Virus record (IMG/VR): IMGVR_UViG_3300036804_000090 | Coordinates: 1 to 33,200 of that record | Reading direction: 5' to 3' (one strand) | Source of the DNA: a virus | Length of the DNA: 33,200 bases | Part shown: in pieces, positions 7,048 to 28,350 of the stretch | Position numbering within the stretch: the stretch's first letter is position 1 | How the letters are laid out: each line of letters begins with the position of its first letter | Translations under genes and position numbers: made by a program | Notes under the pieces: generated by a model | Databases searched by the model: none | What the model was told of the DNA's origin: nothing | The model's input: the letters and a program-made list of their open reading frames with translations, nothing else

Positions 7048-10004
7048 CAGGCGGCCCCTTGCCGGACGGCCCAGGTCGCGCGGCGCATCAGCAGATCGAG
7101 GTCGGCCTGCTCTGAGAAATAGGCGTTGCCGATCTCGACCGCGGGCCCGCCGCCCGAGCCGCTCGCCAGACCGCCCGCGCCGGGGAGCGAGGCGACCCCG
7201 GCGCGAGCGCCGACGGCGGGGGAGGGCAGGTCGACGAGCCCGCTCATCGCCCGCGAGACGTCCTGGCCGCCGCCCTCGATCCCCTCGACGAGCCCGGCGA
7301 CGATCATCTTCCCGATCTCGTCGCGCATCACCTTCGAGGGCGAGCCGATCTTCAGGACCTTCCGGAGCGGTTTGGGGATGAACTTCTTCGCGAAGTTCTT
7401 GACCGCGTTGGCGAGCGACTTCCCCATCGACCAGATCCCGCTGATGATCCCGTGGACGACGCTCTTACCGACCCCGAGGAAGCTCCCGGCGATGTTCCCG
7501 ACCGCCCCGGCCAGGCGGCCCGGCAGGCCCGACGCCCACCCGAAGATCCGCGAGGCGTTGGCCGAGATCCCGTTACGAATCCCGGAGATGACCGCCGCGC
7601 CCTTGCCGAACACGGCCCCGGCCATGTTCCCGATCGCGCCGACGATCCTCCCGGGGAAGCTGGCGACGAGCGCCCAGAGCGTCCCGGCGACCGAGTCGAT
7701 CCCGCCGCGGATCCCGTCGATCACGCCCCTCCCGACGCCGAGCATCGCGGCGGCGAGACCCTCGATCTTTGAGAGCATCGTCCCCGGCAGGTTTGAGAAA
7801 AAGGACCAGATCGACCCGGCGATGTAGTCGATCCCGTTGCGAATTGACTCGATGGCGCCCTTGCCGAGCTGGAACATCTTCGAGCCCATATCGTCGATCT
7901 TGGAGACGATCGTCCCGGGCAAGTTCGAGAAAAAGGACCAGATCGTCCCGGCGATATTGTCGATCCCGTTCCGGATCGACTGGATCGCGTTCTTGCCGAG
8001 CTGGAACATCTTGTCGCCCATATCGGTGACCTTCGAGACGATCGTCCCCGGGAGGTTTGAGAAAAACGCCCAGATCGTCGAGACGGCCGAGTCGATCCCG
8101 TTGCGCATCGACTGGATCGCGTTCCGGCCGACGTCGGTGAGCCAGCTCCCGGCGCCGCTGAGGAGTCTCAGGATCTCCGACGGGAGTGAGCGGAACCAGG
8201 CCCAGATCGTCGAGGAGGCCGACTTGATCCCGCTCATCAGCCCGCTGACGATGTTCTTACCGATGTCCAGCAGCCACTTCAGCGCGCCGGACAGGAGGCC
8301 GGTGATCGTGCTCGCGAGCTTCCCGAGCCACTTGACCGCGGTACCGATCGCTGAGCTGACCGAGTCCCAGTTCTGTACCAGCAGGTAGATCCCGGCGGCG
8401 AGCAGCGCGACCGCGCCGACGACGAGCAGGACCGGGCTCGCGACTACGGCGGTAACTGCGGCGGCGACCCCAGCGGCGGCGTTGTAAAGCCAGAACGCCG
8501 CGGCGATCGCCGCGATCGCGACGATCAGCGGCGAGAGCGGCTTTATGATCGCAGCGAGCATCTCGACCAGGACCACCAGAATCGGGGTCAGCCCCTTTAG
8601 CGCGATCGTCAGCGTCGGGCCGAGGACCTTGACCAGCGAGGAGACGCTCGGGAGCATCGCTTTCACGATCCCGACGAGCTCGCGGAACAGGGTCACGATC
8701 ACCGGGACGATCTGCGCGATGATCGGCCCGAGCTGCTTCCCGAGCGAACGGACGAGCTCCATCACCGGGCCGACGAGCCCGCCGAGCGCCTTCGCGATCT
8801 GACCGAGACCGCCGCGCGCCTCGGGGCTGACGGCGATAATCGCGGCAAGCGCCATCCCGAACGGTCCGAACGCCCCAGTCACGCCCTGGACGAGCGGGCC
8901 GAGCGGGCCGAGCATCGCGCCGATGTTCGCGCCGCCGACCTTCAGCATCATTCCCGCGATCGGCGCCAGCACCGGCGCGAACTCTGAGAAGGCCGACCCG
9001 AGCTTGCCGACCGCGCTGGAGGATCCGGAGAACTTGGAGATCTGCTCGATCAGACCCTCCATAAAGCTCATCGAGCGATTCAGCGCCGGGCCGATCTTCC
9101 CCATCAGCGCGTTCACGATCGGGGTTACCAGCGGTTCGATCGCGCGCAGCAGGTCGGCGAGACGGTTTGCCCAGTCCAGCGCGATCCCGCCGCCTTCCCG
9201 GCGGATGAACGGCTCGACGATCGCAGAGCCGATGTCACGCATCGCGCCCTTGATCCGGTCAGTCGCGCCGACCCAGGTATTTTTGACGCCCTCGGCGGCC
9301 CCGGCGTAGGTCTGGGCCATCTGGTCGACGAGGACCTTCAGCGCCTTCCGGGAGTCCAAGGTGCCCTTTGTGATCGACTCTCGGACCTGGGTGGCGGTCA
9401 TCCCCATCCCTTGCCCGATCAGCTTCGCGGCGTCGATCCCGCGGTAGCCCAATTGGTTCAGGGTGTCGGCGGTGAACTTGCCGGTCGACTGGACCTGGGA
9501 GAGGACGTTCGTAATCTCGCCGATGTCCTTGGAGGTGCCGCCGGTCGCCGCGACGGCGTTCTGGATCGCGTCGAGCGTCGGGATGACGTCCTTGGCCTCG
9601 AAGCCGAAGGCGAGCATCTGCTGGGTGGCTTCGATGAACGCCTGCCGGGGGAACGGCGAGGTCTTAGAGAACACGGCGAGGTCGGCCATCATCTTCTTAG
9701 CGGCGTCGCCTGAGCCGAGGATCGTGCGGAACGCCGCCGAGCTCGTCTGATAGAGGACGTTGTAGGACTTGCCGGAGGCGATCACGGCGGCGCCGAACCC
9801 GGCGGCGGCGCCGACGGCGACAGTGAATCCGGTCGAGATCGTCCGCCCGACGGCGCTCGCGGCCGACCCCAGGCTGGAGCTCAGCCGTTGCCCGATCGAG
9901 CGCCCGGCCTCATCCCCGGCGGCCCCGGCGGCCTGGGCGATCTGCCGGGACATCCCCGAGGTGTTCGCGTTGACGAGGACCTGAAGCTGGCTGTAGTCAG
10001 CCAC
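7047..10004 (-). CDS. Tape measure protein
   Basis: The longest gene, 985 residues, GTG start overlapping the chaperone stop. It sets tail length and is threaded through the tube. Seen: an N-terminal region of TMP type (VLVNANTSGMSRQIAQ; FRTILGSGDAAKKMMADLAVF), long Ala/Gly/Ile-rich helical stretches, hydrophobic segments around residues 490-550 (SPLIVAIAAIAAAFWL; PVLLVVGAVALLAAGIYLLV) that may help membrane passage, seven 44-residue repeats from about 581, and a basic FAKKFIPKPLRKVLKIGSPS region typical of TMP ends. Its place after the frameshifted chaperones agrees. Confidence 0.95.
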   Translation of the reverse strand: MADYSQLQVLVNANTSGMSRQIAQAAGAAGDEAGRSIGQRLSSSLGSAASAVGRTISTGFTVAVGAAAGFGAAVIASGKSYNVLYQTSSAAFRTILGSGDAAKKMMADLAVFSKTSPFPRQAFIEATQQMLAFGFEAKDVIPTLDAIQNAVAATGGTSKDIGEITNVLSQVQSTGKFTADTLNQLGYRGIDAAKLIGQGMGMTATQVRESITKGTLDSRKALKVLVDQMAQTYAGAAEGVKNTWVGATDRIKGAMRDIGSAIVEPFIRREGGGIALDWANRLADLLRAIEPLVTPIVNALMGKIGPALNRSMSFMEGLIEQISKFSGSSSAVGKLGSAFSEFAPVLAPIAGMMLKVGGANIGAMLGPLGPLVQGVTGAFGPFGMALAAIIAVSPEARGGLGQIAKALGGLVGPVMELVRSLGKQLGPIIAQIVPVIVTLFRELVGIVKAMLPSVSSLVKVLGPTLTIALKGLTPILVVLVEMLAAIIKPLSPLIVAIAAIAAAFWLYNAAAGVAAAVTAVVASPVLLVVGAVALLAAGIYLLVQNWDSVSSAIGTAVKWLGKLASTITGLLSGALKWLLDIGKNIVSGLMSGIKSASSTIWAWFRSLPSEILRLLSGAGSWLTDVGRNAIQSMRNGIDSAVSTIWAFFSNLPGTIVSKVTDMGDKMFQLGKNAIQSIRNGIDNIAGTIWSFFSNLPGTIVSKIDDMGSKMFQLGKGAIESIRNGIDYIAGSIWSFFSNLPGTMLSKIEGLAAAMLGVGRGVIDGIRGGIDSVAGTLWALVASFPGRIVGAIGNMAGAVFGKGAAVISGIRNGISANASRIFGWASGLPGRLAGAVGNIAGSFLGVGKSVVHGIISGIWSMGKSLANAVKNFAKKFIPKPLRKVLKIGSPSKVMRDEIGKMIVAGLVEGIEGGGQDVSRAMSGLVDLPSPAVGARAGVASLPGAGGLASGSGGGPAVEIGNAYFSEQADLDLLMRRATWAVRQGAA
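7341..8264 (-). repeat. Seven 44-residue repeats in the tape measure protein
   Basis: Units start at about residues 581, 625, 669, 713, 757, 801 and 845 (132 bp each). The best-conserved units read GKNAIQSIRNGIDNIAGTIW followed by SFFSNLPGTIVSK. Trp and Phe recur at fixed positions, and 44 is four times 11, the spacing seen in other tape measure repeats. The outer units are more diverged. Gain or loss of a unit should change tail length. Confidence 0.85.
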
Positions 10005-16136: not shown

Positions 16137-17558
16137 TCAGGTCGTCGGCGGCGGTGATGTCGTCCCGCCCCCGAGCAGTGCCGCATACGGATCAGTGGCG
16201 CCGAGCGCCGCGGCGGAGACGGCGGCGTCGGCCGCGGCCTCGGCGGCGGCGAGCTGCTCCCAGCGGGCGATCTCCTGCGGGCTGGCGCCCCAGCGCTCCC
16301 AGAGCACCTTGCGCGGAACGCCGAGCGTGCGCATCTTGACCAGCGCGTCGACGAGCTCGCCCTCCGAACGGGTCTCGAAGTCGCGCCAGATCGTCTCGCC
16401 CGAGACGTTGACGGCGCCGGGGTCGCCGACCATCGCCAGCCCGAGGCGCTGGACGCTCTCCCAGCCCTCGCCGAGGTGCGAGGCCCGGCGCCGGACCTTG
16501 GCGACCAGCCCGGCCTCGGCGGCCTTCAGCGCCTCCCCGGAGATGTTCACCATCCCGCCGAGCAGGTAGTGGGGCGGGGTCTGGGTGATCGCGGCGAGGT
16601 GCTGGACGTCAGCCTCGACGGAGTCCAGGTACCCCTTCAGCGTCGACTCTTGGATCACGCCGAAGCGGGCGTCGGGGTTCTCGGACGTCAGCAGCCGGTC
16701 AGCACCGACATTGAACGGCGCGATGTATTCGCCCTCGGGCCCGCGCTCGGCCTTGACGCCGGTGGCGGTGACCTGACGGAAGGCGCCGAAGTCTGAGGCG
16801 ACCAGCCGGTTATAGATCTCCAGATTGATCCGGTCCTGGATCGGGATCACGGAGTGCAGCTCTGAGCGCGGCGGGCCGACGGTCCGCGGCGCCGGTGCGA
16901 GCTCGACGACCGGGACGGTCCTCGTCGGGTTGGCCTCGACTGACTCGGGATCGCCGGAGGGCTCGCCGACGAACGTCAGCGCGCCAGAATCATCCGGCGC
17001 GGCGGCGAGCTCGCGCGTCCAGGTGACGACCTGGTCGGGGGTGATGAGCTGCTCGACGAGCATCGCGCCCTCAGCCACCCGCTTGTAAGCCGCGACGGTC
17101 CGGCGGTGCCCGTTCGGCGCCCGGTAAAGCAAGGTGATCTGGGAGGGGTGCTCCGGGATGATCTGTACGCCGGTCGGGTTGGCCTCCTCGGGCCAGACTG
17201 AGACGAACGTGTGACCGCAGACCAGCGCGTCGGTTTGGACCATCTCGCCGAGGGAGTCCATCGCCGAGGCCTGCCAGATCGTCCAGGCGAGGTCATCGCT
17301 GGAGCCGCCGAAGCGGAACCCGACGACGAGCATCCGCTCGGCGACGGCGTTTACGGTCAGCTCCGACCAGTTCGTGCGGCTGGCGGGGACGAGCTGGCGA
17401 AAGATGTCGCGCTGGTCGCCTGACAGCAGCCGCGAGGCGATCAGGCCGTCGTAATAGTGCTCGTAATGCCGGGCCCGGAGGATCTGGCGATCGAGGCGAC
17501 CGGCGCCCTCGGTGCGCCAGTCGGCGAGGTCGACGTCGAGGTAATCCAGGACCGCCAT
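16137..17558 (-). CDS. Portal protein (SPP1 gp6-like)
   Basis: 473 residues forming the DNA gate ring of the head. Family marks: an early HYEHYYDGL segment, NWSELTVNAVAERM, a central IPIQDRINLEIYNRL, and TPPHYLLGGMVNISGEALKA followed by a long helical stem. Ala/Pro-rich at the C-terminus. Coupled to the large terminase by TGATG and followed by the MuF gene, the standard order. Confidence 0.93.
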   Translation of the reverse strand: MAVLDYLDVDLADWRTEGAGRLDRQILRARHYEHYYDGLIASRLLSGDQRDIFRQLVPASRTNWSELTVNAVAERMLVVGFRFGGSSDDLAWTIWQASAMDSLGEMVQTDALVCGHTFVSVWPEEANPTGVQIIPEHPSQITLLYRAPNGHRRTVAAYKRVAEGAMLVEQLITPDQVVTWTRELAAAPDDSGALTFVGEPSGDPESVEANPTRTVPVVELAPAPRTVGPPRSELHSVIPIQDRINLEIYNRLVASDFGAFRQVTATGVKAERGPEGEYIAPFNVGADRLLTSENPDARFGVIQESTLKGYLDSVEADVQHLAAITQTPPHYLLGGMVNISGEALKAAEAGLVAKVRRRASHLGEGWESVQRLGLAMVGDPGAVNVSGETIWRDFETRSEGELVDALVKMRTLGVPRKVLWERWGASPQEIARWEQLAAAEAAADAAVSAAALGATDPYAALLGGGTTSPPPTT

Positions 17559-26848: not shown

Positions 26849-27046
26849 TCAGTCCGTGGTCTCGGCCTGGCGGCGGCAGACCGCCTCGGCGTAGCCGGGA
26901 TCGGTCGCGGCGATCGTCGCCCGGGCGGCCTCAGCCGCCGCGGCGTCGTCCTGGGCCCGTCGGCGCCGTCCTTCCATCGCCGCGCTATCGCGCTCGACGC
27001 CGTCGGTCTCAGCTCGTCGCCAGAGCTGGGCGAGGGTGCGACTCAT
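26849..27046 (-). CDS. Small helical basic protein
   Basis: 65 residues from the ATG overlapping the upstream stop (ATGA). Mostly one long charged helix (RRRRAQDDAAAAEAARATIA). Function unknown; coupled to the upstream gene and followed 16 bp later by the excisionase. Confidence 0.55.
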   Translation of the reverse strand: MSRTLAQLWRRAETDGVERDSAAMEGRRRRAQDDAAAAEAARATIAATDPGYAEAVCRRQAETTD

Positions 27047-27714
27047 GCGACTCGCTCCTCGTGGCGCCACGGCTCGACGAGGGCGCCCTCACTGGTGAGC
27101 TCATCGAGCGCCCCTTCTGTGATTTGGGAGTAGAACCGGCAGCGGAGACCGTTCACCTTGTCGCCGAGGCCGATTAGCTGCCCAGCGCGAGCGGCGATCT
27201 CATCGAAGGCGTGCCGGTTTAGCAGCGCGTCGTCGAGCTCGATCCCGAAGTGAACGGCCCACGGGCAGAATCGGGCGCGGGTCCGAGTAACGCGGGTCCG
27301 TTTCTGGAGCGAGACCGCGGCGACGAGCCGATAGCGGTCGTCGCCCCACATCCCCTCTATGTCGCGCGGCCCGTCGTATTCGATCGGCGCTCGGGCGCCG
27401 AGGTCGGGGCCGAGGGCGGTCACGGCCTTCCGGGTCCGCTCGCCGTCCCGTGTGATCGTCCCGGCCTGGTAGAGGCAGGTGGTCGCATAGAAGGTCGGTA
27501 GGAACGGCCCGAGGTCCTCGGCCCAGTAGAGCGACCCCTCCCATTCGGTGCGCGAGATGGTGAGGTGATGTTCGATCGTTTTATCGCTGGCCCGGACGGC
27601 GTTCAGTCGGGCGAGCCGTTCGGCGAGCGGGTCCGTCGGGATCGACAGTCGCGGGCTGTGAACGATCAGCGGGTTCCGGTCGTGTCCGACCGTCCAGACT
27701 AGGTGCTGAAGCAC
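27043..27714 (-). CDS. Conserved phage protein of unknown function
   Basis: 223 residues from GTG at 27714, five bases after a perfect AGGAGG. The frame stays open upstream through the pentamer array, but that part looks non-coding. Segments ISRTEWEGSLYWAEDLGPFL, then GPRDIEGMWGDDRY, SLQKRTRVTRTRARFCPWAV and AARAGQLIGLGDKVNGLRCR resemble a protein family widespread in phages, usually seen with DIEGLW and YIGLGDWRPRFGRF motifs. No biochemical role is known to me. It stands immediately downstream of the 5-bp array, which would be in its leader. Confidence 0.7.
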   Translation of the reverse strand: MLQHLVWTVGHDRNPLIVHSPRLSIPTDPLAERLARLNAVRASDKTIEHHLTISRTEWEGSLYWAEDLGPFLPTFYATTCLYQAGTITRDGERTRKAVTALGPDLGARAPIEYDGPRDIEGMWGDDRYRLVAAVSLQKRTRVTRTRARFCPWAVHFGIELDDALLNRHAFDEIAARAGQLIGLGDKVNGLRCRFYSQITEGALDELTSEGALVEPWRHEERVA

Positions 27715-27780
27715 GGTAGCCTCCTGGGTTGTGGGTGCTCGGCGGTCGCGGTATTTGCGGCCGCCGACGCTTTTGAAGTG

Positions 27781-28035
27781 GGCGTGACGTGACATGGCCG
27801 GACTCGACTTGGCGTGACAGGCCCTGGCAAGGCTCGGCGTAACAAGGCGGGGTAAGGCGTGGTTTGGCGGGACACAGCGGAGCAAGGCCTGGCGCGGCCG
27901 GACAGGGCATGACGTGACTCGGCATGGCTGGGCGGGGCTCGGCATGGCGGGCCCAGGCGCGACAGGGCTCGACAAAGCGCGGCAGAGCATGGCTCGACCC
28001 GACGCGGCGCGACAGGACGAGGCGGGACACGGCCC
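27781..28035. repeat. Array of 51 degenerate 5-bp units (GRCNN)
   Basis: From 27781 the plus strand parses without a gap into 51 five-base units such as GGCGT, GACAT, GGCTC and GACAG. Position 1 is G in 46 units and A in 5; position 2 is a purine in 49; position 3 is C in 49 (T in the rest); positions 4-5 vary freely. On the minus strand, the sense strand of the neighbouring genes, the unit is NNGYC. The array starts seven bases from the resolvase stop and ends 66 bp before the next gene's start. The 5-bp period is out of step with codons. It is probably non-coding with an unknown role. Confidence 0.85.
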
Positions 28036-28041
28036 GAGACA

Positions 28042-28350
28042 TCAGTGCGGCCATTCGTCCTCGGGGATCCAGCGCAGGCGCCCGCGCGGCGGCCACCAGG
28101 CCAGCAGCGCATCGGCGCCGCCGAGCTTCGCGGCGAATGAGAGCTCCGCACGTTCCGCCGGGCCGAACCGCTCGTAAGGCCCCTGGGCCGTCGACTTGAC
28201 CTGCACGACGCGGGGGCGGGACCCGACGCGGATCGCGAGGACGTCGGCGGCGCCATGCGAACCGCGAGCGCAGACCGCGAACCAATCCTCGGAGGCGAGG
28301 AGCTCGCGGACGAGCCGGTCGCGGCCGATCCCGCGCTCCCGGCCGCTCAT
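28042..28350 (-). CDS. Hjc-like Holliday junction resolvase
   Basis: 102 residues with the archaeal-Hjc/restriction-fold pattern: GRERGIGRDRLVRELLASED, then CARGSHGAADVLAIRVGSRP (acidic Asp36), VVQVKST (Lys52), and a late GGADALLAWWPPRGRLRWIP. It should resolve branched DNA during recombination or before packaging. It fits the neighbouring RecT and Cas4-like genes. ATGA overlap with the preceding microprotein. Confidence 0.82.
   Translation of the reverse strand: MSGRERGIGRDRLVRELLASEDWFAVCARGSHGAADVLAIRVGSRPRVVQVKSTAQGPYERFGPAERAELSFAAKLGGADALLAWWPPRGRLRWIPEDEWPH

What the first reader, a model, noticed from the sequence alone, without database searches (positions are those of the whole stretch)
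27781..28035. A 51-unit degenerate pentanucleotide array (GRCNN / NNGYC) between two early genes
Seen: 255 bp divide without a gap into 5-bp units with G at position 1 (46/51, A otherwise), a purine at position 2 (49/51), C at position 3 (49/51) and free positions 4-5. Such strict spacing with free filler bases is not what a recently expanded microsatellite looks like; it suggests selection on spacing. Five is half a DNA helical turn, so contacts would alternate between the two faces. In RNA from the sense strand, each unit offers a YC dinucleotide, the kind of contact Rho primary sites use, so a termination or antitermination element is possible. Other ideas are a replication or recombination site near RecT/Hjc, a partition or packaging signal, or a scaffold for a filament-forming protein. 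I know of no described element with this form.
Basis: partly seen in the sequence, partly recalled or inferred. Interest (0 to 1): 0.87.

Follow-up and report, generated by a model that had tools for sequence, protein, structure and literature searches.

The report
Phage VIPR guide-RNA array, unusual variant
The strange five-base pattern is very probably the guide array of a VIPR system, a recently described phage weapon in which a CRISPR-like protein reads the two free letters of each five-letter unit to find rival DNA; this copy is unusually long, unbroken and lies on the strand opposite to its protein gene.

Summary
The array is real: 51 gapless GRCNN units at 27781-28035, the only such run in the window. 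The same kind of array, with fixed core and free filler, is common in viral contigs. It matches the vrRNAs of VIPR systems (PMC13142463), which alternate a GGY core with two guide letters, NN. The neighbouring minus-strand gene, 27043-27714, is a Vipr homologue: it aligns with Vipr of phage SUSP1, and its AlphaFold model (pLDDT 88) finds CRISPR RAMP subunits (Csm/Cas7, Cmr, Cas6) in the PDB. A Vipr homologue lies beside 88 of 125 high-entropy arrays but 1 of 141 microsatellite-like ones. Filler letters are therefore best read as guide sequence. Departures from the published form: one run of 51 units (median block elsewhere 12), mixed GGC/GAC core, GRC strand antisense to vipr, no vap1 homologue found, no structured tail on the GRC side. 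The transcribed strand is undecided, and no natural target was established; a lead to HK97-gp10-like head genes (units 19-26) is unproven.

The parts
27781..28035 (+). vrRNA-like guide array, 51 GRCNN units (GRC sense on +, which is NNGYC on -); transcribed strand undecided
   Evidence: class comparison
27043..27714 (-). vipr homologue (RAMP family, phrog_4652), 223 aa, GTG start with AGGAGG RBS
   Evidence: homology to SUSP1 Vipr; fold
27720..27725 (-). Shine-Dalgarno AGGAGG of vipr
   Evidence: sequence
27733..27772 (.). strong hairpin between array and vipr start; possible 3' tail if the array is read on the - strand
   Evidence: z -4.0 on - strand, -2.6 on + strand
28042..28350 (-).
26849..27070 (-). 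73-aa ORF overlapping the end of vipr, in the place where vap1 sits in relatives; not a vap1 homologue

Best explanation
The array is the guide-RNA (vrRNA) array of a VIPR system carried by a temperate, siphovirus-like phage. The adjacent gene 27043-27714 makes a Vipr (RAMP) protein. Copies of Vipr would line up along the repeat RNA, one per five-base unit; each G-R-C core is held by the protein and does not pair, and the two filler bases of each unit pair with DNA, leaving one target base unread per unit (the published 1-nt-skip rule). The complex would bind and silence genes of competing phages or prophages. Shown here: array form, Vipr homology, predicted RAMP fold, and family-wide association of such arrays with Vipr. 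Taken from the preprint: guide mechanism and skip rule. Inferred: that this copy is expressed, that the 51-unit run is cut into shorter or overlapping guides, and that it is active.
For: Array form equals alternating GGY/NN (PMC13142463). The neighbour is homologous to SUSP1 Vipr and to proteins of phages Trine, MakoManhole, LESphi2, prophiBWHA-1 and LittleE. AlphaFold pLDDT 87.8; the Foldseek matches listed are CRISPR RAMP subunits or effector complexes, best E 4e-4. Array-first: 88/125 high-entropy arrays have a Vipr homologue in the fetched stretch against 1/141 low-entropy ones, Fisher p 5e-39. Protein-first: phages Trine, LESphi2, LittleE, MakoManhole, prophiBWHA-1 and the genomes behind L331 and L332 have arrays beside the gene, as does SUSP1. 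Blocks in the family have median 12 units, 73% within 9-16, as published.
Against: No vap1 homologue in the window. 51 units without separator or clear tail is outside the usual 9-16. A third of the cores are GAC. The GRC strand is antisense to vipr. The G-loop is diverged (GLGDKVNGLRCRF against GLGDWRPRFGRF), so activity is not assured. No natural target established. Foldseek TM-scores are moderate (about 0.3-0.5).
Confidence: 0.88

Rival explanations
1. A VIPR locus in decay: vipr and array derive from a VIPR system, but it has lost its accessory gene and tail and no longer works.
For: No vap1, diverged G-loop, no established target, no consensus promoter or terminator.
Against: vipr is an intact 223-aa ORF with a strong RBS; cores are kept in nearly all 51 units while filler is free, which needs continuing selection or very recent loss.
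Confidence: 0.12
2. A cis-acting RNA or DNA element (Rho site, replication, partition or packaging site) that only happens to lie next to vipr.
For: Periodic YC in the minus-strand RNA; location among early genes (sequence).
Against: Arrays of this form go with vipr across very different viruses; the filler, which such an element would not need to vary, is hypervariable.
Confidence: 0.03
3. Microsatellite or simple-repeat expansion, later mutated.
For: Plain GRCNN microsatellites exist in bacterial genomes.
Against: Filler entropy 3.65 bits and no internal repeat, while bacterial hits have median 0.67 bits; mutation would hit the core as much as the filler.
Confidence: 0.01
4. Part of a protein: an N-terminal pentapeptide-repeat extension of the downstream gene.
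For: Open minus-strand frames through the array.
Against: All three frames are open because the unit form almost excludes stops; RBS at GTG 27714; homologues start there.
Confidence: 0.01

Closest known systems
VIPR systems (Viral Interference Programmable Repeat), in particular the SUSP1 clade (type II of PMC13142463)
   Same: Phage-borne; small RAMP protein homologous to SUSP1 Vipr; adjacent intergenic array of five-base units with fixed core and hypervariable NN
   Different: 51-unit unbroken run instead of 9-16; mixed GGC/GAC core; GRC strand opposite to vipr; no vap1; diverged G-loop; no tail on the GRC side
Class 1 CRISPR RAMPs (Csm3/Cas7, Cmr, Cas6)
   Same: Predicted fold
   Different: No CRISPR repeats beside it, no cas genes seen; the guide is gapped
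Other array-bearing viruses: L035 and L103 (nearest Vipr relatives), L030, L116, L331
   Same: Vipr plus array; L035 has the same mixed core and strand relation
   Different: L103 and L035 keep vap1 and have shorter blocks; L030 and L116 read GTC-NN on the vipr strand

Membership tests
VIPR | RAMP homologue (RRM core, G-loop, thumb) related to Vipr | tested here: met
   alignment with SUSP1 Vipr, profile hit E 9.9e-50 (the window sequence was among the seeds), RAMP fold matches; G-loop diverged; thumb not examined
VIPR | Tandem five-base repeats, GGY core (or related consensus) alternating with hypervariable NN | tested here: met
   core is GRC (GGC about 2/3, GAC 1/3), i.e. a related consensus
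VIPR | 9-16 repeats per vrRNA (type II, characterised members) | tested here: not met
   51 units unbroken; family median 12. The preprint reports staggered overlapping arrays, so this may be a sub-type
VIPR | Structured 3' tail after the repeats | tested here: inconclusive
   no structure on the + side (z -0.5 and +1.8), hairpin on the - side (z -4.0)
VIPR | vap accessory gene (typical) | tested here: not met
   a profile from vap1-position proteins of eight relatives finds nothing in the window; other vap types not tested
VIPR | NN letters match phage targets with 1-nt skip | tested here: inconclusive
   six 8-unit seeds in viral contigs give 3-24 hits, none extending past 9 units; hits of units 19-26 encode TG[KN]LAR[SR]I mostly in frame, but decoded peptides match no family better than shuffles
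VIPR | vrRNA expressed and bound by Vipr | not testable with these tools
   needs RNA sequencing and pull-down
CRISPR array | Long identical repeats with unique spacers, cas genes | tested here: not met
   no repeat at any lag in the filler; no cas family among the early-region proteins searched
Microsatellite | Near-identical units | tested here: not met
   filler entropy 3.65 bits

The most novel reading that the evidence does not exclude
The core of some VIPR guides is G-N-C rather than GGY. In L030, L035, L116 and L331 the vipr-strand core would be GYC (GTC/GCC), and in the window too if the array is read with vipr. Because a G-N-C core stays G-N-C on the complementary strand, such an array read on either strand would specify the same duplex target, so one array could supply guides from both strands, and a 51-unit run could be tiled into many overlapping guides.
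Probability: 0.25. Interest if true: 0.75.

Novelty: new variant of a known kind. Interest (0 to 1): 0.62.

Why it matters
It places an unexplained sequence pattern in the newly reported VIPR class and suggests that the class is broader than its main-text description: GAC/GTC cores, unbroken runs of 50 to about 170 units, arrays opposite to vipr, and loci without vap1. If it works, it would show what a Vipr protein needs from the core and how long arrays are cut into guides, and it adds a phage-against-phage system from a GC-rich phage.

Tried and rejected
Rfam: nothing relevant in the locus, and nothing at gathering score in 17 array loci. Promoter/terminator consensus: none. Target search by decoded peptides in phages, by gapped seeds in viral contigs (extended in 75), all-against-all among held loci (skip 1 gave six hits of score 18, skip 0 one, skip 2 none; two of the six were seeded by my own scans), a 13-unit pattern with 3 mismatches in 397 genomes, decoded peptides against PHROGs with shuffled controls: no target established. 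Core-exception bias as a strand test: not discriminating once capped per locus. The phylum searches were centred on a Streptomyces genome as a guess for a GC-rich host; the true host was not shown.

Full report
Observation. The filler shows no repeat at any lag and high entropy, 3.65 bits. The region is most likely non-coding: three open minus-strand frames cross it, but vipr starts at GTG 27714 with an AGGAGG site, and homologues have no such extension.

Class. Viral hits have free filler (median entropy 3.0 bits); bacterial genome hits are mostly plain microsatellites (median 0.67 bits). Core exceptions are mainly GGT and AGC, i.e. transitions. Some viruses use GGC, some GAC; L080 and L045 show blocks divided by constant separators.

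Identity. A paper search for pentanucleotide repeats in phages found PMC13142463 (read), which describes VIPR: a phage-encoded ancestral RAMP protein, Vipr, with vrRNAs of 9-16 YNNGG repeats whose NN letters read DNA with one skipped base per unit, repressing competing elements. The SUSP1 record holds a two-gene locus flanked by GGTNN arrays where the paper puts them; that ALH47069.1 is its Vipr is my inference from this layout and from its homology. The window gene 27043-27714 aligns with it and with phage homologues. Profile search finds this family in most loci with degenerate arrays: 88/125 high-entropy arrays against 1/141 low-entropy, p 5e-39 (related loci are counted apart, so the p-value is nominal); some loci without a hit are cut short by the contig or stretch end. 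From the protein side, phages Trine, LESphi2, LittleE, MakoManhole and prophiBWHA-1 and loci L331 and L332, found by protein and not by array, have arrays beside the gene (the last two phages only with a relaxed core pattern); L009 shows none in the stretch held. AlphaFold with 58 sequences gives pLDDT 87.8, and the PDB matches listed are Csm, Cmr, type III-D, type VII and Cas6 chains, E 4e-4 at best, TM about 0.3-0.5.

What differs here. Vipr-linked blocks have median 12 units (IQR 10-15); 51 ranks sixth of 308, and the five longer ones come from L014, L034, L066 and L109, which form one other Vipr clade. The nearest Vipr relatives are L103 (support 0.88) and L035 (0.69); both keep a vap1-like gene after vipr, the window does not. 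The core is mixed GGC/GAC, as in L035. The GRC strand is opposite to vipr in the window and in L030, L035, L080, L116, whereas 84 arrays have it on the vipr strand.

Which strand is read. For the minus strand: co-direction with the surrounding genes, a hairpin after the array (z -4.0), kinship with L035. For the plus strand: match to GGY, and the filler classifier. In 85 same-strand arrays the first filler base is purine-rich; a leave-one-out test is right in 48 of 51 arrays with 25 or more units, and gives +4.1 for the plus strand in the window but -7.3, -9.0, -2.5, -4.2 for L030, L035, L080, L116 and -4.1 for L331. L030's array is followed by an intrinsic-terminator-like hairpin on the vipr strand (by eye). 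The question is open.

Targets. Six 8-unit seeds gave 3-24 viral hits each and no extension beyond nine units. Hits of units 19-26 lie mostly in frame, skip base at the wobble position, and many fall in proteins that look HK97-gp10-like, with the motif TG[KN]LARSI (family named from the motif by eye, not from a family search). This motif is common in phages, so the match may be chance; shuffled guides were not scanned against the same collection, and a longer pattern found nothing in 397 genomes. It is a lead only.

Verdict. A VIPR guide array with high confidence; a variant in length, core, strand relation and lack of vap1; function in this phage is inferred. Whether the preprint's supplement already lists such variants could not be checked.

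Noticed in passing
L249:4661-4716, L253:3699-3757, L253:3834-3892, L253:5289-5352, L250:2959-3030: Tails after vrRNA arrays of Gordonia and Mycobacterium phages look like tRNA mini-helices: a T-arm with GGTTCGANTCC, in several cases stacked on an acceptor-like stem; could guide RNase P/Z processing.
   Followed up: partly
L030:11277-11520, L116:8054-9262: Arrays whose vipr-strand core is GTC-NN, with short constant separators; in L030 followed by an intrinsic-terminator-like hairpin.
   Followed up: partly
L045, L100, L118: GAC-core arrays on the vipr strand; L045 lies in an AT-rich phage.
   Followed up: partly
L080:468-957: GGCNN blocks divided by the constant 7-mer TACCTCA and ended by a large hairpin, opposite to vipr.
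   Followed up: partly
L014:6331-7000, L034 (minus strand 860-2432): Very long arrays (140 and 173 units) next to ORFs that look RusA-like (named by eye).
   Followed up: no
L061, L125, L172: Arrays with a vap1-like ORF but no Vipr in the stretch held; vipr may lie beyond the end.
   Followed up: no
window 16829-16916 +: ARAGORN calls a tRNA-Cys antisense to the portal gene; probably false.
   Followed up: no
window 7674-8131: 132-bp tandem repeat (about 3 copies) inside the tape-measure gene.
   Followed up: no
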